This document shows positions 6,714 through 48,282 of a DNA stretch of 64,000 bases, one piece after another (position 1 is the stretch's first letter; each line of letters starts with the position of its first letter). Made by a program: the position numbers and the translations under genes. The DNA lies in the NCBI RefSeq assembly GCF_019599465.1, contig NZ_RKLR01000001.1, forward strand, positions 372,001-436,000, read 5' to 3'. Source of the stretch: Haloarcula rubra (GTDB taxonomy: Archaea > Halobacteriota > Halobacteria > Halobacteriales > Haloarculaceae). The notes beneath the pieces were generated by a model. The model made no database searches. It was not told where the DNA came from and saw only the letters and a list, made by a program, of their open reading frames with translations.

Positions 6714-7424
6714 ATGGTCCCTCCAACACGCCGTCGCGTCCTCCACGGAGTCGCCGGCCTCGCGAGTGCACTCGCCGGGTGCGGTGGCTTGCTCGACGGG
6801 AGCGCCGAATCGAGTCGCGCGTCGCCGACCGCGACCGCCCGCCAGAACGACTTCGCCGGGTCCGAGTCCGACCCCGAGAGCGTCGCCCTCCGTGCCGACA
6901 CCGACCGGCCGCCGGTCTGGCTCGCGGACCCCGAACAGGAGGACGGCGGGCGACCGACCGAGTCGGAACACTCCTACTTCCGGACGAACGCCCTCGTCGA
7001 CGGCGCCGAACGTGCCGAACGGGTCTCCGTCGCCGACGTCTCGGGTGCGGACCGCGTCGGGGCGTTCCTCGACGCCACCGCGTTCGACAGCGAGACGGTG
7101 TACGTCGAGACGCATCAGGTAGGCGAGTGCTTCCGCCTCGAACTCTGCGGTGTCTCGTGGCGGCCGGACGAGGTCCAGACCGACTACACGCGCGTCACCC
7201 GTCCCTACGACGAAGCCTGCCGGGCCGACGAAAAAGTGTTCGCGGTGCGGCTCGTCAGGATTCCGGCCGCCCTCGACGCGGACTCGGTGACCGGGTTCGG
7301 CTCCTCTGTCGGCACCGGCGGGTGTCGACGGGGGCCGGCGGCCGAAAGCAGTGCGTCGACCGCGGGCGGCGACGGCACCGGCCAGACCGAGACGCCGACG
7401 CGGACGACCGGGGGTGGGCAGTGA
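6714..7424 (+). CDS. Tat lipoprotein, function unknown
   Basis: A 236-aa exported protein. TRRRVLHGVAGLASALAGC at the N terminus is a Tat signal with a lipobox Cys at about residue 23. A low-complexity Ser/Thr/Ala linker follows, then a compact domain of about 130 residues containing three Cys (GECFRLELCGVSW and YDEACRADEKVF) in the pattern of a disulfide-stabilised extracellular fold. A Ser/Gly/Thr-rich tail holds one further Cys. No family recognised. A TATA-like 'acttattcc' lies about 33 bases upstream. Its stop (TGA) overlaps the start of the next gene (TGATG), so both lipoproteins come from one transcript. Confidence 0.65.
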   Translation: MVPPTRRRVLHGVAGLASALAGCGGLLDGSAESSRASPTATARQNDFAGSESDPESVALRADTDRPPVWLADPEQEDGGRPTESEHSYFRTNALVDGAERAERVSVADVSGADRVGAFLDATAFDSETVYVETHQVGECFRLELCGVSWRPDEVQTDYTRVTRPYDEACRADEKVFAVRLVRIPAALDADSVTGFGSSVGTGGCRRGPAAESSASTAGGDGTGQTETPTRTTGGGQ

Positions 7425-8716
7425 TGGTACCGACCGACGGGACGACGCGACGCAGGTTCCTCGCAGTCGTCGGTGCGAGTGCGCTCGCCGGGTGTGGTGC
7501 CATCGAGGATTTCGGCGGCGATGAGCGGACGACCATCCGGAGCCACGAACTCCCCGACGTCGACCACGAAGCGGGGCCGCGCCGTCGGGTCGCGCCCGCC
7601 GTCCCCGTCGCTATCGACGGCGCGTACCTCGGGGCGGCCCGCGACCGGACCACGGACCTGCTCGCGGCCCTCCCGACGCCGCTGGGCCCCGACGAGATTC
7701 CCAACGGATACGTCCGAGAGCGACTGCTCGACGCCTCGACTAACGCCTCCGACGCCCTCGACGAGGCCCGGCGCGCGGAGACGGCGTTCGCCTCGATGCA
7801 GGAACTGCGCCGGGCCCGTGAGCACGCCCGGTACGCCGCCGCTGGGTGGCGGTTCGTCGACGCGGGCCAGTCGGTCGCCAGCCTTCGCGAGGAACACGAG
7901 ACGGCGACAGCGGCGGCGCGGTCTATGCGGTCGGCCTACGACCACCTCGGGGCCGACCCCGTCCGGGCGGCACTGGTCCACGCCCGAGTCGAGCGAGCGC
8001 TCGAGCGGGCGGCCGACGGCGAGCAGCCCCGTGCGCCCGACGACGGGTCGGCGCTCCTGACCGTCGCCGAGTGGGGCGAGGAAACAGAGTCGACCCGGGC
8101 GCTCCTCGAGGACGCGCGGCACCTCGACTCGCAGTTCCGGGCCTCGCTCCCGTCGGACGCCGGGACCGTCGAGCCACGCCTCCGCCGGACCGCCGAGACG
8201 CTCCTCTCGACGGCCGAGTCGCGCCTGTCGACGCTCCCACCCGAACCGACTGCCGACGACTGGGGCACCGTCGAGCGCGTCGTCAGCGACCTTCGATACG
8301 AGGCCGAGGACGGACTCGCGCGCGTCGCCGAGGCTCCCGGACCGGCCACTGCCGTCGTCGACGCCACCGGACGACTGGCTCACTTCGACGCACTGGACCG
8401 CGTGCAGGACCGCGTCGAGTCCGGCGACCGGTTCCGTGTCGAGAGCGCCGCCGACGTCCACCAGTACAGGGAGACGGCACTCGACGCGCTGGCGTCGGCA
8501 CTCGCGGACAGCCCCGCACCCGGACTCGCCAGAACCATCCTCACCGACGCCGCCGGCCGAGTCTGGAGCGCAGACTGGGAGCTGAGTCGGGCCCGCGGCG
8601 AGACCACGCCCGAACAGTTGTCCGACCCCGTCGCGTCGTACGTCGTCGCGACGGCGCTCGCACGGGCCGCACCGACGGCCAGTCGACGGACCGCAGACAC
8701 GCTCGCGTCCGCATAG
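7424..8716 (+). CDS. Helical Tat lipoprotein, function unknown
   Basis: A 430-aa exported protein with TRRRFLAVVGASALAGC, a Tat signal with lipobox, at residues 8-24. The mature part is nearly all alpha-helical and rich in Ala, Arg, Asp and Glu, with repeated 'RAR/ARxAxAR' heptad-like runs and no Cys after the lipobox. That suggests an extended helical bundle. No enzymatic motif was found. It overlaps the preceding lipoprotein gene by one base. The frame also contains GTG at 7421 directly before the ATG, which makes no practical difference. The coupling suggests that the two lipoproteins act together at the outer face of the membrane. Confidence 0.65.
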   Translation: MVPTDGTTRRRFLAVVGASALAGCGAIEDFGGDERTTIRSHELPDVDHEAGPRRRVAPAVPVAIDGAYLGAARDRTTDLLAALPTPLGPDEIPNGYVRERLLDASTNASDALDEARRAETAFASMQELRRAREHARYAAAGWRFVDAGQSVASLREEHETATAAARSMRSAYDHLGADPVRAALVHARVERALERAADGEQPRAPDDGSALLTVAEWGEETESTRALLEDARHLDSQFRASLPSDAGTVEPRLRRTAETLLSTAESRLSTLPPEPTADDWGTVERVVSDLRYEAEDGLARVAEAPGPATAVVDATGRLAHFDALDRVQDRVESGDRFRVESAADVHQYRETALDALASALADSPAPGLARTILTDAAGRVWSADWELSRARGETTPEQLSDPVASYVVATALARAAPTASRRTADTLASA

Positions 8717-38520: not shown

Positions 38521-39039
38521 ATGACCGACGTGGAGACACTCGAAGAGCGGGTTCGGACCGTCGAGCGTGCCGTCACCGACGGCGACCACGACGTGCCGGC
38601 GGTCGAGGACCGAGCGGAGCTAGACGCACGCCTGACCGCCGTCGAAGACCGCGTCGACCGACTGGACGAACGCACCGCGGACCTCGAAGCGGCGACGCAG
38701 GCCCTCCGGGGGTACGTCGGTAACGTCCGGTCGGTCAACGAGGACGTCGAACAGCGCGCCGACGCGGCACTCGCCGCGACCGACCGTCTCGAACGCCGTC
38801 TCGACGACGCGCTGGACGACGAGCGGCCGTCGTCACACCCGACCGAACCGCGGCGACCGACGACAGACCGCGCCGGCGACCATCAGCAGGCCCCCGAGAC
38901 GACAGTCGACGGGCCCAGCGGCGACCCGCCAACCCGGCCGGCCGACGGTCGGACGACCCCGGTCGCGGACGGCGGAGAGGGTGACCAACCGACGACGCCC
39001 GACGACGGCGTCCTCGAACGGATACGGGCGCTCCTGTGA
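38521..39039 (+). CDS. Coiled-coil protein, first gene of the secretion/pilus-like operon (DUF7310-like)
   Basis: A 172-aa cytosolic protein. A coiled coil ('ELDARLTAVEDRVDRLDERTADLEAATQALRGYVGNVRSVNEDVEQRADAAL') takes the first 100 residues, a Pro/Thr/Asp-rich linker follows, and a short conserved helix ends the protein ('DDGVLERIRALL'). No catalytic motif. ATG 38521 is supported by composition; the stop overlaps the next gene's start as GTGA. Its place as operon leader suggests a scaffold or regulator of the machine encoded downstream. Confidence 0.75.
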   Translation: MTDVETLEERVRTVERAVTDGDHDVPAVEDRAELDARLTAVEDRVDRLDERTADLEAATQALRGYVGNVRSVNEDVEQRADAALAATDRLERRLDDALDDERPSSHPTEPRRPTTDRAGDHQQAPETTVDGPSGDPPTRPADGRTTPVADGGEGDQPTTPDDGVLERIRALL

Positions 39040-39512
39040 TACTCCGAGTGGTCCTCGGTGCGGTACTCACCGCCGCGTTACTCGGGGTAACCGCGCCCGC
39101 GCTCTCGGCCGCACAGGCCGACGCCACCGACGCCGCCGTCGAGCGACGGCTGACGACGCTCGCTGAGCGACTGCAGACGATGGTCGCCACCGACGACGCC
39201 ACGCACGACCGGGGTGCACGCCGAATCGCAGAGGTTCGGCTCCCCGAACGGACGCTGACGAGCGCCGGCGTCGGTTCGCTCCGGTTCCACAGTCGCGAGG
39301 GCGTGGGCGTCGCCAGTTGGCGGGCCGGCGACGCGAGCGCGGCCAGTAGTCGGCTGGTCGGCGTGCCGATACGACCCGCCGGCGGGTCGCTCACGCTCCG
39401 TGAACCCGGCGTCCACCGTCTCGCGTTCGGACTGCGGACCCGGGACGGCCGGACGGTCGTGACGGTGCGACGACTGGCCGGCGCCGCCGACAGCCACCGG
39501 GAGGACCGATAG
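39036..39512 (+). CDS. Exported or anchored small protein of the pilus-like operon (DUF7311-like)
   Basis: A 158-aa protein starting at GTG 39036. The first 27 residues (ILRVVLGAVLTAALLGVTAPALSAAQA) form a Sec-type signal peptide with a good A-x-A cleavage site. The mature part has a conserved 'AEVRLPERTLTSAGVGSLRFHSREGVGVASWRAG' and a beta-rich end. Function unknown. Four-base overlap with the gene before; the ATPase starts directly after its stop. Confidence 0.7.
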   Translation: MILRVVLGAVLTAALLGVTAPALSAAQADATDAAVERRLTTLAERLQTMVATDDATHDRGARRIAEVRLPERTLTSAGVGSLRFHSREGVGVASWRAGDASAASSRLVGVPIRPAGGSLTLREPGVHRLAFGLRTRDGRTVVTVRRLAGAADSHREDR

Positions 39513-41369
39513 ATGCGGCGCTGGTTCACGAGAGGCGACGGCACAGACGATGGTGCCTGCCGCTGTCGCGCCTCGTTCGAGGGCGAGACGCTCGGCGTGG
39601 CGGCGGACGACTGTCCGGAGAGCGGACGGCTGAGCGAGTCGGCGGACTGTCGCGCGACGGTGGTCGACGCGCTTGGGACGACGGCCGTCGACGCCGTCGT
39701 GACGAGGAGCGACGGCGTCGAGCGCGCCTACCTCGACGACGCGGCCGCACTGCTCGTCGCCGCGGGACGGTTCGCCACACGGGTCGAACCACTCGACCGG
39801 CGACTGGCCGACCGGGCGCGTCGTGAGCCACTGGCGGCCGCGACGGAGGCCACCGGACGTACCGGACAGGTGGCCGACCTCGCCGCGAAGACCGGATTCG
39901 CGCTGGCCGCCGAGCGTGCGAGTGCAGAGTCCGCACTCGAACCGTACGTCGGCCCGGCGGTCAGCGACGCGCGCATCGCCGCGAGTCCGCCGGCCGACGC
40001 GACGCTCCGGGACCGTCGGACCGTCGAGACCGACGCGGTGGTACGGCGGTACGCCACGCCGGCGTCGTCGCTCGACTGCTACCACGTGCGGCCCCGGGAA
40101 CACGAGTTCGACCCCGCGACGACGGCCACGCTCGCGTCGGCCGTCGAACGACTGGCGACAGCGCCGGTGGACGAGCGCGAGACGCCGTATCGGGCCGCCT
40201 CGGCGGTCACGGACGACGGCGGGACGGCGGCCGCACTCGGTGCCGTCCTCCGGAAGCACACGCAGGGGCTGGGAGTCCTCGAAGACCTGTTCGCCGACCC
40301 GCGCGTCTCCGACGTGTTCGCGACGGCGCCGGTCGGCGAGACGCGACTGCGGGTCCGGGTCGACGGCGAGACGATGGTGACGAACGTCCGGTTGACCACC
40401 GCAGGCGCGCGAACGCTCGCCTCCACGTTTCGCCGGACGAGCGGCCGGGCCTTCTCCCGGGCGAGTCCGACGCTCGACACGACGGCCACCGTCGCCGACC
40501 GGAAGGTCCGGGTCGCCGGCGTCACCGAACCGGTGAGCGACGGCCTCGCGTTCGCCTTTCGCGCCCACGGCGAGGGCCACTGGCGACTGTCCGACCTCGT
40601 CGCGAACGGGACCGTACCGGCGCGTATCGCCGGGATGCTGTCGGTCGCAGTCGAGCGCGGGGCGGCGTGCCTCGTCGCCGGTCCCCGCGGCGCGGGCAAG
40701 ACGACCACGCTGGGCGCGCTCCTCTGGGAACTCCCGCGGTCGGTCCGGACCGTCGTCATCGAGGACACACCAGAACTCCCGGTGACGGACCTCCAAGCCG
40801 ACGGACGGGACGTCCAGCCGTTGCGGACGGCGAGCGGCGAGGGGCCGTCGGTCGACGCGAGCGAGGCCCTGCGGACCGCACTCCGACTGGGCGAGGGGGC
40901 TCTCGTCGTCGGCGAGGTCCGCGGCGAGGAGGCGGGCGTCCTGTACGAAGCGATGCGGGTCGGCGACGGCGACAGCGCGGTGTTGGGGACGATTCACGGC
41001 GCTGGCGGGGAGAGCGTCCGCGAGCGACTCGTCTCGGACCTCGGCGTCCCGGAGAGCGCGTTCGCCACGACGGACCTGCTCGTGACGCTCGCCCCACCGA
41101 CCGCCGAGGCCGGCCGGGGAGTAGCCGCCGTCGAGGAGGTACGGGACCACGGCGACGGCGTGGGGTTCGCGCCGCTGTTCGAACGTGACGGCGAGCGCGC
41201 GACGGCCACCGGTCGACTGGACAGGGGGAACAGTCACTTGCTCGAAACGCTGTCGCACGCCGGCGAATCCTACGCGAGCGTACTCGATGCCATCGAGGAC
41301 AGGACCGACGAGATGGCCGAACGGGCCCGACGACCGTCGATGGCGACAGCCGGGGGGAGCGAGACGTGA
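39513..41369 (+). CDS. Secretion/pilus assembly ATPase (type II/IV, GspE/VirB11 family)
   Basis: A 618-aa cytosolic hexameric ATPase that powers assembly of pilus-like fibres. Walker A is at residues 390-397 (GPRGAGKTT...), Walker B is 'GALVVGEVRGEEAGVLYEAMRVGD', and the His box is 'VLGTIHGAGGESVRERL'. An N-terminal module is specific to this group: Cys16, Cys18, Cys34 and Cys46 in 'DDGACRCRASFEGETLGVAADDCPESG' look like a metal site. The gene overlaps the platform gene by four bases. The order ATPase-platform is the hallmark of archaeal PilB/PilC and archaellum (FlaI/FlaJ) systems. Confidence 0.9.
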   Translation: MRRWFTRGDGTDDGACRCRASFEGETLGVAADDCPESGRLSESADCRATVVDALGTTAVDAVVTRSDGVERAYLDDAAALLVAAGRFATRVEPLDRRLADRARREPLAAATEATGRTGQVADLAAKTGFALAAERASAESALEPYVGPAVSDARIAASPPADATLRDRRTVETDAVVRRYATPASSLDCYHVRPREHEFDPATTATLASAVERLATAPVDERETPYRAASAVTDDGGTAAALGAVLRKHTQGLGVLEDLFADPRVSDVFATAPVGETRLRVRVDGETMVTNVRLTTAGARTLASTFRRTSGRAFSRASPTLDTTATVADRKVRVAGVTEPVSDGLAFAFRAHGEGHWRLSDLVANGTVPARIAGMLSVAVERGAACLVAGPRGAGKTTTLGALLWELPRSVRTVVIEDTPELPVTDLQADGRDVQPLRTASGEGPSVDASEALRTALRLGEGALVVGEVRGEEAGVLYEAMRVGDGDSAVLGTIHGAGGESVRERLVSDLGVPESAFATTDLLVTLAPPTAEAGRGVAAVEEVRDHGDGVGFAPLFERDGERATATGRLDRGNSHLLETLSHAGESYASVLDAIEDRTDEMAERARRPSMATAGGSET

Positions 41370-43063
41370 CCGGGAGACCGGCGCCGAACGAACTCGTCGA
41401 ACGGGTGACCGACTGCATCGGCGTCCCGGACGGGTACGAGAGAGCGACTCGCGTCCTTACTCTCGGGTGGCGTGCCGAACGGCTCCTCGCCGCGAGTTAC
41501 GCCGTCGCGGGCTGCTGCTGGCTCCTCGGTCTAGCGGCCCTCTCTATCTGGACCGGTGCGGTCGCCGTCGTCGTCGGCACCGCCTGCCTCCTCGTCGCGG
41601 TCGGGGCGGTGCTCGCCGGTCGCTACGGTGTCCCTCTGGCCGCACAGGCACGTCGGATACGTGCATTGGGGGCGGCCCCCTCGCTCGTCGCGACGCTCGT
41701 CCTCGGGCTGACGCTGTGGCCGAGTACCGAGCGAGCGACGGCGTTCGCAGCGGCGGCCGACGACGGCCTCCTCGCCGAGCGTCTCGACGCACAGCGACGA
41801 CGAGCGTGCGGCACGCCGCGGGACGGTCTCGGGCGGTTCGCCGAGCAGTGGAGCGACGAGTTGCCCGCACTGGCGGCGGCGATACACCACGTCCAGCGAG
41901 CGGCCGTCGCGCCGCCCGACGAGCGAGCAACCGCCCTCGAAACGGCACGGCGGCGGGTTCTCGACGGGACACGGGACGAGATGGCGGCGTTCGCCGCCGA
42001 CCTACGTGCGCCCGCGACCGGACTGTACGCCTTCGGCGTCTTGCTCCCGCTGGCGCTGGTGTCGCTGTTGCCAGCGGCCACAGCAGCGGGCGTCCCAGTC
42101 ACACCGTCACTGCTCGTCGTCACCTACGGGCTAGTGCTCCCGTCGGTCCTCGTCGTCGCGAGTGCGTGGCTCCTCGCGCAGCGACCGGTCGCGTTCCCGC
42201 CGGCGGTAGTGCCGCGGAGCCACCCGGACGTACCGTCCACGCCGGCCCCTGCCGTCGCTGGTGGCGTGGCCGCCGCTGCCGGTGGCTGGGTCGCCGGTAC
42301 CTTCGTCGCACCGGGCTGGGGGCCGCCACTCGCCGCGCTCGGGGTCGGGACCGGTACCGCGCTCGTGATTCACTATCGACCGGTTCGCGACGTGAGGGGG
42401 TACGTCACAGATATCGAGGCCGACGTGCCGGACGTGCTGACGGCTATCGGCCGACGCGTCGACCGAGGGCAGTCGGTCGAAGCGGCGCTCGCAGCGGCAG
42501 TCGACGTGACGCCGGCGCCGCTCTGTGACCGCTTGGCCGAGACGCTCGACCGCCAGCAGACCCTCTGCGTCGGTATCGAGGAGGCGTTCTGTGGCGAGTA
42601 CGGGACGCTCCGTACCGTCCCGAGTCCGCGCCTCCGGCGTGCGGCGGTGCTGCTGGACGCGGCCGCCGACGTCGGCCCGCCGGCCGGCGAGACGATCACC
42701 ACGATGGGGGAGCATCTGGCCGACCTCTCGGCGGTCGAACGGGAGACGCGTTGTGACCTCGCGCAGGTCACCGGGACGCTCTCGAACACCGCCGCGCTGT
42801 TCGGACCGCTCGTCGGCGGCGCCACCGTCGCACTCGCCGGGACGATGGGGAGCGGCGGCCCCATCGAGGCCGTGTCGGCGGCGGTCCTCGGCCCCGTCGT
42901 CGGCTGGTACTGTCTCGTCCTCGCGGCCGTGTTGACGGCCCTCTCGACGGGACTCCGTCGAGGGCTGGACCGAGCGCTCGTCGGCTACCGCGTTGGGCTG
43001 GCGCTCTGCTCTGCGACGGCGACGTACCTCGCGGCCGTCGTGGGGACGGGCCTGCTGGTCTGA
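41366..43063 (+). CDS. Membrane platform protein (type II secretion F/TadC family)
   Basis: A 565-aa integral membrane protein with about nine predicted helices in three groups. It has two cytoplasmic T2SF-like modules: one about residues 90-210 ('LARAAIHHVQRA'-like helical stretch) and one about 350-480 ('VEADVPDVLTAIGRRVDRGQSVEAALAAAVDV' with 'LSNTAALFGPLVGGATVALAG'). It is the expected partner of the ATPase that precedes it. An unusual number of Gly/Ala/Val-rich helices make the N-terminal group hard to align. The TATA box of the next genes lies just behind its stop. Confidence 0.85.
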   Translation: MTGRPAPNELVERVTDCIGVPDGYERATRVLTLGWRAERLLAASYAVAGCCWLLGLAALSIWTGAVAVVVGTACLLVAVGAVLAGRYGVPLAAQARRIRALGAAPSLVATLVLGLTLWPSTERATAFAAAADDGLLAERLDAQRRRACGTPRDGLGRFAEQWSDELPALAAAIHHVQRAAVAPPDERATALETARRRVLDGTRDEMAAFAADLRAPATGLYAFGVLLPLALVSLLPAATAAGVPVTPSLLVVTYGLVLPSVLVVASAWLLAQRPVAFPPAVVPRSHPDVPSTPAPAVAGGVAAAAGGWVAGTFVAPGWGPPLAALGVGTGTALVIHYRPVRDVRGYVTDIEADVPDVLTAIGRRVDRGQSVEAALAAAVDVTPAPLCDRLAETLDRQQTLCVGIEEAFCGEYGTLRTVPSPRLRRAAVLLDAAADVGPPAGETITTMGEHLADLSAVERETRCDLAQVTGTLSNTAALFGPLVGGATVALAGTMGSGGPIEAVSAAVLGPVVGWYCLVLAAVLTALSTGLRRGLDRALVGYRVGLALCSATATYLAAVVGTGLLV

Positions 43064-43102: not shown

Positions 43103-43564
43103 ATGTTCGACACACACGTCGACACGCTGTACGTCTGGGTGGCGCTCGGGGCCGTGAGCGTCGCCGTCTTCGGCGTCGTCGCCTCGCTGCCCGCGTCTGC
43201 GCCGCCGGACGCGACGACCGCCGCTACGACGGTCGACGAAGTGGCGACCAGCCCACCCGGGTCGGTCGCCACCCACGAACTGGACGCCGAGGAGTGGACA
43301 CTGTCGGGGCGGGCAATCGGACTCCGTGCCGACGGCGGCGTCGCCCACGCGACGGTCCTCGACCCGTACGTCCCCGCACTCGGGGGTCGCCTCGCGGCCG
43401 TACTCGCTGGCGCGCCGCCGAGACGGTACTTCCGGTCACCAGCGGCCCTCGGACGGGCCGCCGAACGAGCACGTACTGCCGACGCGGAATGGCGACCGGC
43501 ACCGGAGCGACTCAGGGTCCGGCACGTCCGCTGGGGAGGTGTCGATGTCGTCCTCGCCGGATAG
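43103..43564 (+). CDS. Single-helix anchored protein of the pilus-like operon (DUF7283-like)
   Basis: A 153-aa protein with one N-terminal membrane helix (residues about 10-27, 'YVWVALGAVSVAVFGVVA'), then a short Ala/Thr/Pro linker and an external domain ('TVDEVATSPPGSVATHELDAEEWTLSGRAIGLRADGGVAHATVL'). It could be a minor subunit or anchor of the fibre. It overlaps the next gene by 20 bases. No prepilin-type cleavage site is obvious. Confidence 0.7.
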   Translation: MFDTHVDTLYVWVALGAVSVAVFGVVASLPASAPPDATTAATTVDEVATSPPGSVATHELDAEEWTLSGRAIGLRADGGVAHATVLDPYVPALGGRLAAVLAGAPPRRYFRSPAALGRAAERARTADAEWRPAPERLRVRHVRWGGVDVVLAG

Positions 43565-43931
43565 AGGGGCGACCGAACCGCTCGCGGCGCTCGTGGCCGT
43601 CTTCGCCGTCTCGGCCGGACTGGCGCTGTACGCGGGCGTCCTCGACGGGGCGCTGGCGTCCGCGACCGGTGATCGGAACGTCGCGACGCCGACCGCCGAT
43701 TCGGTTGAGCGGCGACTGAGTACCGCCGGCGTGGTCTCGCCGAACCGAACGGCGAACGCGCTCGACGCCGTCCCGACCGGCTACGACGGGAACGTGACGG
43801 TCCGTGCCGGCAGGCGGTGGAGCGCCGGCCCGTCACCGCCCCCCGACGCGGCGCGTACTCGCCGGACGGTCAGTGTCCGGGTCGCACCGGCGACGGTCAA
43901 ACGTGGGACGCTCCGGGTGACCGTCTGGTGA
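43545..43931 (+). CDS. Pilin-like protein of the pilus-like operon (DUF7285-like)
   Basis: A 128-aa protein. Residues 1-8 are polar and end DRG, followed by a 20-residue hydrophobic helix starting ATEPLAALVAVFAV. Arg-Gly directly before a hydrophobic H-domain is the pattern cut by archaeal prepilin peptidase (class III signal). A small external domain with a 'NVTVRAGRRW' strand follows. Its stop overlaps the next GTG start. Confidence 0.7.
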   Translation: MSSSPDRGATEPLAALVAVFAVSAGLALYAGVLDGALASATGDRNVATPTADSVERRLSTAGVVSPNRTANALDAVPTGYDGNVTVRAGRRWSAGPSPPPDAARTRRTVSVRVAPATVKRGTLRVTVW

Positions 43932-44803
43932 CGCCCCGGGCCACCAGCACCGTCGTCGACGTGACGGTGTTCCTGTTGCTGATCGGGGCCGCCGCCACGG
44001 CCGTCGTCGGCGCCGTCGCCGTGGACACGCCGGAGACGGCGAACCCAGCGGCCGACACCGCCGAGTTACTCGCGACGAGTACCGCGAGCGTCGAGTACGC
44101 ACTCGACCCGCCCGGCCGACCGCCCGAGTGGACCGCCAACGCCACCGCGAGTCACCAGCGGACGGCGCACGGTACTGTCGCAGAACTGCTCGGGGAGGCG
44201 GCGATGAGCGGCGTCACCGTACACGGGAAGCGACTGTCGACGGCCGGCATCGGGTTCGAGCGAGCGGTCGAGGCGACGACCCGGGAGCGCCTCGCCGGTT
44301 CGGGTCGACAGACGTCGGTTCGGGTTCGCTGGGAACCGTACCCCGGAGCGCCGGTCCGTGCGACGGCCCGCGTCGGTGAGCGACCGCCACCCTCGGCCGA
44401 CGTGCGGACGGCGACGCTCGGCGTGGCGAGTCCGATGCCGAACGCGACCAGCGGAGCACGTCGGGGCGCCCGTGAGGCCGGTTACCGAGGGGTCGCGATA
44501 GTGGTCGCGTCGGCCGTCGTGGACGGTCTCTTTCCGCCATCGCAGACCCGGTTGGCACTCCGCGGCGACTACCCGGGTGAACGGTTGATGGCGACGCGAT
44601 ACCGTCGAATGGGGCGTCTCACCGACGCGGGCAGGTTGCCGCTCGGTTCGCGGTCTGTGGCGGACCTGAACGCTCGACTGACGGTGCACCTCGCCGACGG
44701 TCTGGCCGCCGACATGCGAGGGCGGTTCGACTCCCCGGTCGCCGCGGCCCGAGCAGTCCAGACCGAACGCGTACACATCACCGTCAGGACGTGGTCACCG
44801 TGA
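43928..44803 (+). CDS. Pilin-like protein of the pilus-like operon (DUF7284-like)
   Basis: A 291-aa protein from GTG 43928 (GTGA overlap). After the short basic start VTPRA comes the hydrophobic stretch TSTVVDVTVFLLLIGAAATAVVGAVAV, again a possible class III cut site behind Arg-Ala. The external domain begins 'TAELLATSTASVEYALD' and ends 'VQTERVHITVRTWSP'. Cys is absent. The stop overlaps the following gene by four bases. Confidence 0.7.
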   Translation: MTPRATSTVVDVTVFLLLIGAAATAVVGAVAVDTPETANPAADTAELLATSTASVEYALDPPGRPPEWTANATASHQRTAHGTVAELLGEAAMSGVTVHGKRLSTAGIGFERAVEATTRERLAGSGRQTSVRVRWEPYPGAPVRATARVGERPPPSADVRTATLGVASPMPNATSGARRGAREAGYRGVAIVVASAVVDGLFPPSQTRLALRGDYPGERLMATRYRRMGRLTDAGRLPLGSRSVADLNARLTVHLADGLAADMRGRFDSPVAAARAVQTERVHITVRTWSP

Positions 44804-47800
44804 CGAGCGACACGCGCGGCCGGGTGCCGTTCGCACTGCTGGGCGTCCTCCTGCTGGTGAGTAGTCTGACGCTCGCGCCGACGCTGCGGCCGGCGCCCGC
44901 ACCGACCGACACGGCCGTCGAGCGCACGCTGGACCGAGCGACGGCGGAGACCCAGACGGCGGTGCGCGACGCCGTCTCGCGGGCCGGACGGCGAGCGGCG
45001 GCGAACCCGGTATTGGAACCGGCGAACACCTCCGTCGGCCGCGCGCTGGCCGAATCCCGGCCGTTCCGGGACGCGCTCCGGCTACGGATATATCTGCAAC
45101 TCCGTGACCGACTCCGTCGTGTCGGTGCGACGAGCGAAGGGGTCGAGGCGACGGCGAACCTCCCGGCCGTCGAGACGACCGCCGACTACCGGGCCGCGAT
45201 AGCGCGCGTCGCCATCGCACGGGCGGGCCCGAACGAGACCGCACTCCGAGCGACTGTCGAGAACGTGACGCTGACGGTGCGGCGCGGCGGCCGGGTGGTC
45301 ACCCGGCGTGACATCTCGCCCACCGTCGTCGTCGCGACACCGGTCCTCGCACTCCACGCACAGGTCCAGACCTACGAGCGGCGCGTGAACAGCGGGTTGG
45401 GAAAGCCGGGACTGAGTCGGCGGTTGACCGCTCGGCTCTACCCCATCGTCTGGGCGCGTGGGTACGCCCAGTACGGGGGCGTCCCGATAGAGAACGTCCT
45501 CGCGAACCGGCACGTCGGCCTCGCCACCAACGGCGCGCTACTGGGCGTCCAGCGGTCGACGTTCGGCCGGAGCGACCCGGACGGCCGACGGTCGCTCACG
45601 GAGGCGACCGCGATGGTCGGCGTCGAGGACGTGATAGCGGGCAGTAACGACACCGCACTCGCACAGGAAGTGCTCGGGCAGGCGTCCTACCGGCCAGCGA
45701 GTGACGACATCAGCACCGGCGGGACCGCCGGCGACCACCCGCGTGCGAACGAGACGATGCGTGTCGGAATCGACGGGACGGCCGACGACGCCTTCCAGTC
45801 GGTCGCGGCACCCGACGCACTCGGACAGACGACGGCGGAGGCCTACACCGTCGACGTGCGGCTCGTCGCCGACAGTCGGCGAGTGAGCGGCGGTCGACCG
45901 TCGCGGCCGCCGTCGCCGGGCGAGAACTGGACCCTCGTCGGCGAGCGGACGACCGACACCGCCGACGCGGTCGGCCCGGTCACCCCGAACCCGACCGTGC
46001 CGGACGGCTGGCACGAACTCGATAGTTTCGGCCGGGCCGTCGAGGTCGAGTACACGCGCGTAGCGCTCTGGGAGAACGGGACGGAGCGACGGTCGACCGC
46101 GTCGCGTCGGTCCGAGCGCCGTCGGGTGACGGTCACGGTCGTCGGGCAGCACCGGAGCGACTCCGTCGCACCGGCAGAGCGAATCCGGACGGCTCACGAC
46201 AGCGCGGAAAGTCCGGTCGGCGGGCCGAATCTGGCCGACGTCGAACGACGGGCCGAACGAGGGCTGGTCGGACGGGCTGGCGGTCCCGACGCCGTCGCGG
46301 AACGCGCCGCCGAAGGTCGCCTTCGGACCCCGACCGTGGACGTCACTGGGGCACGGCCGGACGCGCTCGGAGCGTGGGTGTACCGGGACCTCAGACGGGT
46401 CCGAGAGCAGGTCGCGGCGGTGAACGTGACTGTCGAGCGCGGTGCCGTCGGCACGTTCGAGACGAACCCGGCACGCGAACTCCGGGCGAAACTCGCCGAC
46501 CGTCGCACGGAACTCGTTGACGCGCCCGACACCTACGACAGCGCCGCACAGAAAGCGCGAGTAGCGGCCCGTATCGCCTACCTCGACGCGGTAGACGCAC
46601 GTCTCGCTGCCCGGGCACGGCGACGGGATTCGGCCGGCCGACGCGTGGACGACCGACTCCGGGACCGGACGAACGGGTCACTGCGCGACCTCCGGAAGGG
46701 TCTGACCGCCCGCGACACACAGAAACCGCGCTCGCGGCCGGTACCGACCGGGGTGGCCGGTCCGGTTCGGACCCGCGTCGACGCGCGGCCGCAGTACCTC
46801 ACGCTGGCCTCGGTGTCGGAGTCGTCTCACCCCGCGGTCGATGGGCGCGAACACCCGCTGGTCGCCCGAAACGTCAACGTGTTCACCGTCCCGTACGGCG
46901 ACGCGGCCAGTGCGGTGACGGACGGCGTGACTGCCTCGGTCGACAGAGCGCGCCTCACGACGGCGGCGACGACGCTGGCCGCGGCGGACGCGACGGCCGA
47001 CGCGTCGTCGAACACCACGCTCGACCGCCGCCGTCGCCGATTACGGCATCGCGTGGGACGGGCGAACGACCACGTCGCCGCCGAACTCGCCGCCACTGTC
47101 GGCGAGGAGACCGACGCCGACGCGTCGGCGAGTCGAGCCATCGTCGAAGACGCGCTCCGACGTTGGGAGACGCCCGCCGCCCGCGGACAGGCGCTCGCGG
47201 ACGGGTCGGCGGCCTCCGCCGTCGCGAACGTCGCCGCCGACCGGCGGGGCCTCTCACTCGTCGAGCACGACTGGCTCCGACTGCGGCTACGAGACGCGGC
47301 CAGCGACGCCCTCGCTCGGCCGGTAGCCCGGCCCAAGACGCCCGTCGTCGACCGGACTGCCTCGACAGTCCGGACCGTCGCACGGGACCAGTTGCGACGG
47401 CGACTCGCCGACGCCGGCCGGCGCCGGGCAGAGCAGATGACGAAGCGCCGTCTGGGGACGAAGACCCTCCCGTCGGGGCTCCCGGTGGCGCCGCCGCTGG
47501 GCCCGTGGTACGCGACGACGAACGTCTGGTGGGTCACGGTCGAGGGGGAGTACGCCCGGTTCGCGGTGACCGCGAGCCACGGCCCGCCGACGACGCCGGG
47601 CGCGACGACGACGTACGCTCGGGACGGCGAGCAGGTCCATCTCGACGTGGACGGGGACGCCGAGGCGGAACTGCTCGGGCGGAGTACGCGACTCTCCGTA
47701 CGGGCGCAGACTGGCGTCGTGGTCGTGGTACCGCCGAAACCCCGCGGTGTCGGCGACAAGGACGGCGTCGCCGTCGAGACGTCGGCCGGGTGGCCCCACG

Positions 47801-47829
47801 CCGGCGCGACGGAGAGTGACAGCGACTAA
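44800..47829 (+). CDS. Very large pilin-like/adhesin protein of the pilus-like operon (DUF7286-like)
   Basis: A 1009-aa protein starting GTG 44800 (an in-frame GTG at 44791 is an alternative). N terminus VTSDTRG, then the hydrophobic helix RVPFALLGVLLLVSSLTLAPT, resembles a class III prepilin. The rest is a long external, repeat-poor, Arg/Ala/Asp/Thr-rich domain with no Cys, mixed helix and strand, ending in a Trp-rich 'GPWYATTNVWWVTVEGEYARFAV'. Its length and place last in the operon fit a tip adhesin or large surface component. No adhesive repeat was recognised. Confidence 0.7.
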   Translation: MTSDTRGRVPFALLGVLLLVSSLTLAPTLRPAPAPTDTAVERTLDRATAETQTAVRDAVSRAGRRAAANPVLEPANTSVGRALAESRPFRDALRLRIYLQLRDRLRRVGATSEGVEATANLPAVETTADYRAAIARVAIARAGPNETALRATVENVTLTVRRGGRVVTRRDISPTVVVATPVLALHAQVQTYERRVNSGLGKPGLSRRLTARLYPIVWARGYAQYGGVPIENVLANRHVGLATNGALLGVQRSTFGRSDPDGRRSLTEATAMVGVEDVIAGSNDTALAQEVLGQASYRPASDDISTGGTAGDHPRANETMRVGIDGTADDAFQSVAAPDALGQTTAEAYTVDVRLVADSRRVSGGRPSRPPSPGENWTLVGERTTDTADAVGPVTPNPTVPDGWHELDSFGRAVEVEYTRVALWENGTERRSTASRRSERRRVTVTVVGQHRSDSVAPAERIRTAHDSAESPVGGPNLADVERRAERGLVGRAGGPDAVAERAAEGRLRTPTVDVTGARPDALGAWVYRDLRRVREQVAAVNVTVERGAVGTFETNPARELRAKLADRRTELVDAPDTYDSAAQKARVAARIAYLDAVDARLAARARRRDSAGRRVDDRLRDRTNGSLRDLRKGLTARDTQKPRSRPVPTGVAGPVRTRVDARPQYLTLASVSESSHPAVDGREHPLVARNVNVFTVPYGDAASAVTDGVTASVDRARLTTAATTLAAADATADASSNTTLDRRRRRLRHRVGRANDHVAAELAATVGEETDADASASRAIVEDALRRWETPAARGQALADGSAASAVANVAADRRGLSLVEHDWLRLRLRDAASDALARPVARPKTPVVDRTASTVRTVARDQLRRRLADAGRRRAEQMTKRRLGTKTLPSGLPVAPPLGPWYATTNVWWVTVEGEYARFAVTASHGPPTTPGATTTYARDGEQVHLDVDGDAEAELLGRSTRLSVRAQTGVVVVVPPKPRGVGDKDGVAVETSAGWPHAGATESDSD

Positions 47830-47853
47830 TACCCCCCGTGCGTACCGGTGCCC

Positions 47854-48282
47854 ATGCTCAGAGCGGAGTTCCCCGACGCAGGAACGCAGTCACCCGAGGC
47901 GCTGCTGGCTGCCTACGAATCGGTCCTGGCCGAGACGGTCGAGACGGTCGGCACCGACGCCGTCGTCGAAGCGACCGGCCTCGACCGGGAGACGGTCGAA
48001 GCGGCCGCCGCCGGCGACGCGGCCGATCTCACACTCTCGGACGCGGCGGCCGTCCTCGCGACCGATCCGGAGCGGCCCGACGCCGACGCGATTCGGGCGG
48101 AGGCACAGGACATCCTCCTGATGGGGATGACGACGGCCGTGATGGACGTCGAGACGCTGGCGTCGGGCATCGACGACGAGATGGAGCCGAAGGAGATACA
48201 ACAGAAGATAGAGGGCCGCTACCCGGTCACGCTGGCCGAGTACGCCGTCCTCCACAGCTACATCGAGAGCGAGCAGCGATGA
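47854..48282 (+). CDS. Haloarchaeal DUF5791-like protein
   Basis: A 142-aa acidic helical protein ('MLRAEFPDAGTQSPEALLAAYESVLAETVETVG' at the N terminus, 'EIQQKIEGRYPVTLAEYAVLHSYIESEQR' at the C terminus). It resembles a haloarchaea-only family (DUF5791, from memory). Function unknown. ATG 47854 was chosen, as it gives the family start. It overlaps the following epimerase-like gene by four bases and lies 24 bases after the pilus-like operon, with no clear promoter between. Confidence 0.7.
   Translation: MLRAEFPDAGTQSPEALLAAYESVLAETVETVGTDAVVEATGLDRETVEAAAAGDAADLTLSDAAAVLATDPERPDADAIRAEAQDILLMGMTTAVMDVETLASGIDDEMEPKEIQQKIEGRYPVTLAEYAVLHSYIESEQR

What the first reader, a model, noticed from the sequence alone, without database searches (positions are those of the whole stretch)
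43545..44900. Three operon proteins have prepilin-like N termini
Seen: 'DRG|ATEPLAALVAVFAV' (43545 gene), 'PRA|TSTVVDVTVFLLL' (43928 gene) and 'TRG|RVPFALLGVLLLV' (44800 gene) each place a basic residue and a small residue before a roughly 20-residue hydrophobic stretch. Known: archaeal PibD cuts class III signals of that layout. Inference: these are pilin-like subunits, the last with a giant external domain that would be unusual for a pilin.
Basis: partly seen in the sequence, partly recalled or inferred. Interest (0 to 1): 0.7.

Follow-up and report, generated by a model that had tools for sequence, protein, structure and literature searches.

The report
Conserved prepilin-like trio with giant subunit
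Three adjacent genes in a salt-loving archaeon's pilus-type operon carry short, strongly conserved signals of the kind cut off pilus subunits, and the last encodes a thousand-residue outside protein that probably caps the filament the way large tip subunits do in bacteria.

Summary
DRG|ATEP (43545, DUF7285), PRA|TSTV (43928, DUF7284) and TRG|RVPF (44800, DUF7286) are where stated. In one genome the motif is weak evidence: about a third of N-terminally anchored proteins there carry a similar one (25/72). Across 79 related loci, however, Arg(-2)-Gly/Ala(-1) is kept in 77/79 DUF7285 and 76/78 DUF7286. The helix after it is more conserved than what follows, which does not fit a disposable Sec signal. 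DUF7284 keeps the motif in 51/79. The other 28, all Haloferacaceae-type genera, have lost the leader: the start codon sits at the predicted mature N terminus. The trio also occurs together in methanogens. The operon has a T2SSE ATPase with four invariant N-terminal Cys, a divergent TadC-like protein and a coiled-coil protein. This matches the published halobacterial type IV pilus subclade 4F (by features, not by a tree). Best reading: minor-pilin-like subunits, with DUF7286 (largest, last gene, no acidic residue near its start) as a GspK/TadG-like cap. Against a strict 'pilin' label, confident models of DUF7284 and DUF7286 match no solved structure. PibD cleavage, filament assembly and function are untested.

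The parts
38521..39039 (+). DUF7310 coiled-coil protein; likely the intracellular coiled-coil component of the halobacterial 4F pilus locus
   Evidence: Pfam DUF7310 E=1.8e-22; start codon read from the translation (MTDVETLEERV); present in 65 of 79 loci
39036..39512 (+). DUF7311, single-pass protein, no class III motif
   Evidence: Pfam E=4.4e-32; N terminus of the MIRVVLAV type, no [KR][GAS] before the hydrophobic segment
39513..41369 (+). T2SSE/VirB11-type secretion ATPase with Cys-rich N terminus
   Evidence: Pfam T2SSE E=5.2e-18; four Cys (residues 16,18,34,46) invariant in 68/68
41366..43063 (+). Divergent TadC/T2SSF-like multi-pass membrane protein
   Evidence: T2SSF only E=0.027; several TM segments; next to the ATPase in nearly all loci that hold both
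43103..43564 (+). DUF7283, single-pass protein, no class III motif
   Evidence: Pfam E=2.7e-46; MFDxPVDAWYxW N terminus
43545..43931 (+). DUF7285, prepilin-like: leader MSSSPDRG, then ATEPLAAL helix
   Evidence: Pfam E=2.9e-34; R(-2)[AG](-1) in 77/79, E or D(+3) in 65/79
43928..44803 (+). DUF7284, prepilin-like here: leader MTPRA, then TSTVVDVTV helix, Asp at +6
   Evidence: Pfam E=7.7e-88; motif in 51/79, leader lost in 28/79; model pLDDT 90
44800..47829 (+). DUF7286, 1009-aa protein: leader MTSDTRG, one N-terminal helix, about 980-residue external part; proposed filament cap
   Evidence: Pfam 1125 bits; R(-2) 76/78, P+3 F+4 A+5 78/78; model pLDDT 84, no fold match
47848..48282 (+). DUF5791, conserved downstream neighbour, function unknown
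   Evidence: Pfam E=2.9e-49; present in 74/79 loci

Best explanation
The operon encodes a type IV filament system of the halobacterial subclade-4F kind. DUF7285, DUF7284 and DUF7286 are inserted by Sec with their N termini at the cytoplasmic face. PibD cuts them after Gly/Ala(-1), leaving the conserved hydrophobic helix at the mature N terminus. They act as the minor-subunit complex that starts and caps the filament driven by the operon's ATPase and TadC-like protein. DUF7286 (largest, last gene, no acidic residue near its start) is the outermost cap, like GspK or TadG, and shows its large domain outside the cell. DUF7285 (Glu+3) and DUF7284 (Asp+6) link it to the filament. Shown here by computation: genes, motifs, their conservation, the operon, the co-occurring trio, single-anchor topology. 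Inferred: cleavage, assembly, cap position, adhesion or contact as the function.
For: Motif conservation across 79 loci. The helix is better conserved than what follows: 76% against 44% in the next 20 residues (DUF7286), 70/45 (DUF7285), 58/39 (DUF7284). ATPase plus TadC-like protein in the same operon with conserved order. The trio also lies together in methanogen-type genomes, with Gly/Ala at -1 throughout and further class-III-like neighbours such as DEKG|ADFL and DDRG|VDYG. One prepilin peptidase in the genome. PibD accepts leaders of 3-4 residues (PMC4187195), and a charged -2 residue is the archaeal rule (PMC4371748). The published signature of a first subunit, namely largest, 3'-most gene and no acidic residue at position 5 (PMC5207764), fits DUF7286.
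Against: No detectable sequence homology to known pilins or among the three, only a weak DUF7285-DUF7287 link. Confident models of DUF7284 and DUF7286 match no pilin, and both have a low-confidence linker instead of one long helix. DUF7284 lacks the leader in 28/79. In methanogen DUF7286 the -2 residue is often not basic, or not charged. The methanogen stretches fetched show no pilus ATPase beside the trio. No experiment.
Confidence: 0.6

Rival explanations
1. The three are exported with ordinary Sec signals (n-region R, hydrophobic core, A-x-A-like site after it) or simply stay anchored by an uncut N-terminal helix; the R-G/A before the helix is the usual positive-inside charge in an Ala/Gly/Arg-rich proteome.
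For: 35% of N-terminally anchored proteins sampled have the same motif; SATFA- or ALASA-like stretches follow the helices (window translation); DUF7284 lacks the motif in 28/79; flexible linkers after the helices in the models.
Against: Cleaved Sec signals are not expected to keep R-[GA]-R-[VI]-P-F-A-L-x-G-V nearly invariant over 78 loci and recognisably into methanogens; the helix is more conserved than the rest; Gly/Ala(-1) is kept even where -2 changes.
Confidence: 0.25
2. They are PibD substrates but not filament subunits: surface-anchored assembly, adapter or adhesin proteins that use the class III route, as bindosome sugar-binding proteins do in Sulfolobus.
For: No pilin fold match for two of three; DUF7286 is very large; class III substrates that are not pilins are known in Sulfolobus (PMC4187195).
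Against: Near-constant linkage to a filament ATPase and TadC-like protein; the size, gene-order and charge pattern fits a minor-pilin tip set.
Confidence: 0.25
3. DUF7284 alone is not a PibD substrate in function: its N-terminal segment is an uncut anchor everywhere, and the R-[AG] in some lineages is incidental.
For: Leaderless in 28/79 while the rest of the protein and the D+6 stay conserved; leader of only three residues (MRA) possible in several others.
Against: In the leaderless lineages the start codon lies at the predicted first residue or just before it, so the made protein resembles the cut one; Gly/Ala(-1) is kept in methanogen homologues.
Confidence: 0.3

Closest known systems
Halobacterial type IV pilus systems of ATPase subclade 4F (Makarova, Koonin, Albers 2016, PMC4858521)
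   Same: ATPase with Cys-rich N terminus, cognate TadC, an intracellular coiled-coil protein, predicted pilins and a larger surface protein in Halobacteria, with relatives in methanomicrobia
   Different: The parts of the paper read here do not describe DUF7283-DUF7286, a giant class III subunit or leader loss; its supplementary tables, which may list these genes, could not be read. No tree was built here to place the ATPase
T2SS minor pseudopilin tip complex, GspK family (PMC5207764)
   Same: Set of small subunits with acidic residue near the start plus one much larger subunit, encoded last, without it
   Different: DUF7286 is far larger (1009 aa), has no detectable GspK homology, and the acidic residues are at +3 or +6, not +5
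Tad pilus tip pilins TadE/F/G and KilL/M/N (PMC12075869)
   Same: Three-subunit set with prepilin peptidase sites, the largest with a big extra domain of no known fold; a TadA-family ATPase model is the nearest NCBIfam match of the operon's ATPase, below its cut-off
   Different: Kil subunits have a recognisable pilin fold; DUF7284 and DUF7286 models do not match any solved pilin
Haloferax volcanii PilA pilins and other FlaFind-positive proteins (PMC4371748)
   Same: Charged -2, small -1, hydrophobic helix, single PibD
   Different: PilA proteins are small major pilins; here a conserved Pro lies at +3/+4 in two of three and Arg at +1 in DUF7286

Membership tests
Archaeal class III (PibD) substrates | Charged residue at -2 and Gly/Ala/Ser at -1, right before a hydrophobic stretch near the N terminus | tested here: met
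   Window proteins and 77/79 DUF7285, 76/78 DUF7286; DUF7284 51/79
Archaeal class III (PibD) substrates | Cleavage by PibD before the helix | not testable with these tools
   Needs a pibD deletion strain and N-terminal mass spectrometry; one Peptidase_A24 gene is present
Type IV pilins (fold) | Long N-terminal helix packed on a beta-sheet head, recognisable by structure | tested here: not met
   DUF7284 and DUF7286 models: no PDB match at E<=0.001, no pilin among the listed hits. DUF7285 not modelled
Type IV filament systems | Assembly ATPase and TadC/PilC-type platform encoded with the subunits | tested here: met
   T2SSE E=5e-18; TadC-like protein below the Pfam cut-off but multi-pass and in conserved order
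Subclade 4F halobacterial pilus locus | Cys-rich ATPase N terminus and coiled-coil arCOG07564 protein | tested here: inconclusive
   Four invariant Cys and a DUF7310 coiled-coil gene found; arCOG identity and ATPase tree not tested
GspK-like cap subunit | Largest subunit, 3' end of the cluster, no acidic residue at about +5 | tested here: met
   DUF7286 is last of the set, 1009 aa, Ala+5 in 78/78, first acidic residues well after the helix
GspK-like cap subunit | Homology or fold similarity to GspK | tested here: not met
   No PDB sequence or fold match

The most novel reading that the evidence does not exclude
A three-subunit archaeal filament tip, shared by haloarchaea and methanogens, is capped by a giant class III protein of new fold; and in Haloferacaceae-type haloarchaea one of its subunits is translated directly in mature form, bypassing the prepilin peptidase.
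Probability: 0.3. Interest if true: 0.65.

Novelty: new variant of a known kind. Interest (0 to 1): 0.45.

Why it matters
It gives a concrete role to families named only as unknown (DUF7284-DUF7286, with DUF7283 beside them) that are carried by most haloarchaea sampled (224 of 292 genomes hold DUF7286). It turns the tip of an archaeal type IV filament, which is largely uncharacterised, into a short list of genes that can be tested in Haloferax or Haloarcula. The natural loss of the DUF7284 leader is a ready-made test of whether prepilin cleavage is needed for every subunit.

Tried and rejected
Common ancestry of the three proteins: profile comparisons gave nothing. Relatives by sequence among solved structures: none meaningful; the weak ribosomal uL16 match of DUF7284 (E=0.0016) was taken as chance, since the fold search did not support it. 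Fold matches of DUF7286 to SecB, TolC or phage maturation proteins: E>0.02, TM-scores of at most about 0.35, rejected. Chance as the sole cause of the motif: rejected by conservation, although it cannot be rejected from the single genome. An automatic anchor misplaced two Halobellus DUF7285 rows and several DUF7284 rows (Haloferax among them); these were corrected from the printed alignments. The original FlaFind paper was not held. No paper in the library names these DUFs.

Full report
What is there. The window comes from a haloarchaeon close to Haloarcula/Halomicroarcula (best named relative of the 44800 protein: Haloarcula pellucida, 83% identity). On the + strand nine genes follow one another: DUF7310 coiled coil, DUF7311, a T2SSE ATPase, a TadC-like membrane protein, DUF7283, DUF7285 (43545), DUF7284 (43928), DUF7286 (44800, 1009 aa) and DUF5791. 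The three genes of the finding overlap at start and stop (20 bases into DUF7283; GTGA for the next two), so they are probably translated together.

Is the motif more than chance? In one genome, hardly. I sampled 400 kb of the same genome and found that 25 of 72 proteins with a hydrophobic N-terminal segment also carry [KR][GA] just before it; by my reading about nine of them are themselves pilin-like. Conservation decides. I collected 79 loci; gene content and order are nearly constant. DUF7285 has Arg(-2) and Ala/Gly(-1) in 77 of 79, with Glu or Asp at +3 in 65 and Pro at +4 in most. DUF7286 has Arg(-2) in 76 of 78, Gly/Ala(-1) in 77, Arg+1 in 77, and Pro+3, Phe+4, Ala+5 in all 78 (two Halobellus DUF7285 rows misanchored were corrected). 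The leader before the motif varies in sequence and length. The hydrophobic helix is more conserved than the 20 residues after it: 76 against 44% in DUF7286, 70 against 45% in DUF7285, 58 against 39% in DUF7284. A signal that is thrown away would not be expected to look like that. The operon's two other single-pass proteins, DUF7283 and DUF7311, lack the motif and serve as internal controls.

DUF7284 is different. The motif is present in 51 of 79 and absent in 28: Haloferax, Halorubrum, Halobellus, Haloquadratum, Halobaculum, Halolamina, Haloplanus, Halogeometricum, Halogranum, Halobium, Halopenitus, Haloprofundus and Halegenticoccus. These are Haloferacaceae-type genera by general knowledge of the taxonomy (Halobaculum looked up). 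Salinigranum of the same family keeps the motif. In the 28 the ATG or GTG that overlaps the DUF7285 stop (ATGA/GTGA) falls at -1 in 23 and at +1 in five (Haloferax rows corrected for a wrong anchor). In these lineages the protein is made without a leader, beginning where the cut form would begin. The simplest reading is that the mature N terminus matters and the cut does not, at least for this subunit; that it is never cut anywhere remains possible.

Distant relatives. In six of these stretches DUF7285 and DUF7284 homologues lie beside it. The site becomes x-[GA]: DDRA|RVPF, DDGA|RVPF, DTRA|YIPF, DERG|VTEP, DDRA|YSTT. Gly/Ala(-1) is kept throughout, while the -2 residue changes. One such operon has two further genes of the same layout, DEKG|ADFL and DDRG|VDYG. 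No pilus ATPase was seen beside these sets, as with pilins encoded in trans elsewhere (PMC4858521).

Machine. The genome has seven ATPase loci of this superfamily and one prepilin peptidase. The operon's ATPase has four N-terminal Cys invariant in 68 of 68, and a coiled-coil gene lies upstream. Makarova et al. describe these two traits for the halobacterial pilus systems of subclade 4F (PMC4858521). I therefore file the operon there by features, without having built the tree.

Structure. AlphaFold gives DUF7284 at mean pLDDT 90: anchor helix 7-27, disordered linker, then an alpha/beta domain. No PDB match reaches E<=0.001. DUF7286 reaches pLDDT 84 and pTM 0.69: one anchor helix (11-28), a low-confidence link, a long helix (38-68), then about 940 mostly confident residues of mixed helices and long strands; no match in PDB or in viral models. 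So the external domain is predicted to be folded and matches no solved structure, and neither protein is recognisably a pilin by fold. DUF7285 was not modelled.

Mechanism. The set fits the published signature of a filament-starting complex: several minor subunits with an acidic residue near the mature N terminus, plus one larger subunit, encoded last, without it (PMC5207764). Tad-type tips also end in a large subunit with an extra domain of unknown fold (PMC12075869). Leaders of three to four residues, as possible in some DUF7284, are acceptable to PibD (PMC4187195). I therefore propose that DUF7286 caps a short or long type IV filament and that DUF7285 and DUF7284 connect it. Cleavage, assembly, position and biological role (adhesion or contact) are inference.

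Verdict. New here, as far as the papers read show: conservation into methanogens, the cap reading, and the natural loss of the DUF7284 leader.

Noticed in passing
L056, L066, L068, L076, L078-L080, L084, L085, L087, L089, L091, L095, L096, L098-L105, L108, L111-L113, L115, L116 (DUF7284 start, about position 7000-7500 in most): DUF7284 lacks any class III leader; its start codon overlaps the DUF7285 stop (ATGA/GTGA) at residue -1 or +1 of the predicted mature protein.
   Followed up: yes
L150 83-935, 1647-2343, 3061-3772: Three small tandem genes carry only the C-terminal part of DUF7286 (about profile 550-1000), so that domain also exists on its own; separate copies are also seen in L139 16587-17391 and L143.
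   Followed up: no
window 39513-41369: The ATPase has four N-terminal Cys (residues 16, 18, 34, 46) invariant in 68 of 68 sequences, a possible metal or disulfide site on a cytoplasmic motor.
   Followed up: partly
window 43103-43564 and 39036-39512: DUF7283 (MFDxPVDAWYxW) and DUF7311 (MIRVVLAV type, Arg invariant) are conserved single-pass proteins with no class III motif in the same operon; DUF7311 weakly resembles DUF7266 (E=0.006).
   Followed up: partly
L172 2366-7132 (own genome, contig C35): A second pilus-type locus holds several neighbouring genes with class-III-like starts (RGQSGPLG, RAVSTALN, RGVSEVLG, RGQLLLVA, RGQAHTLE, RGQTNLDF).
   Followed up: no
L016 (G100), DUF7286 gene: One haloarchaeal DUF7286 has an in-frame TAG stop, probably a broken copy or a sequencing error.
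   Followed up: no
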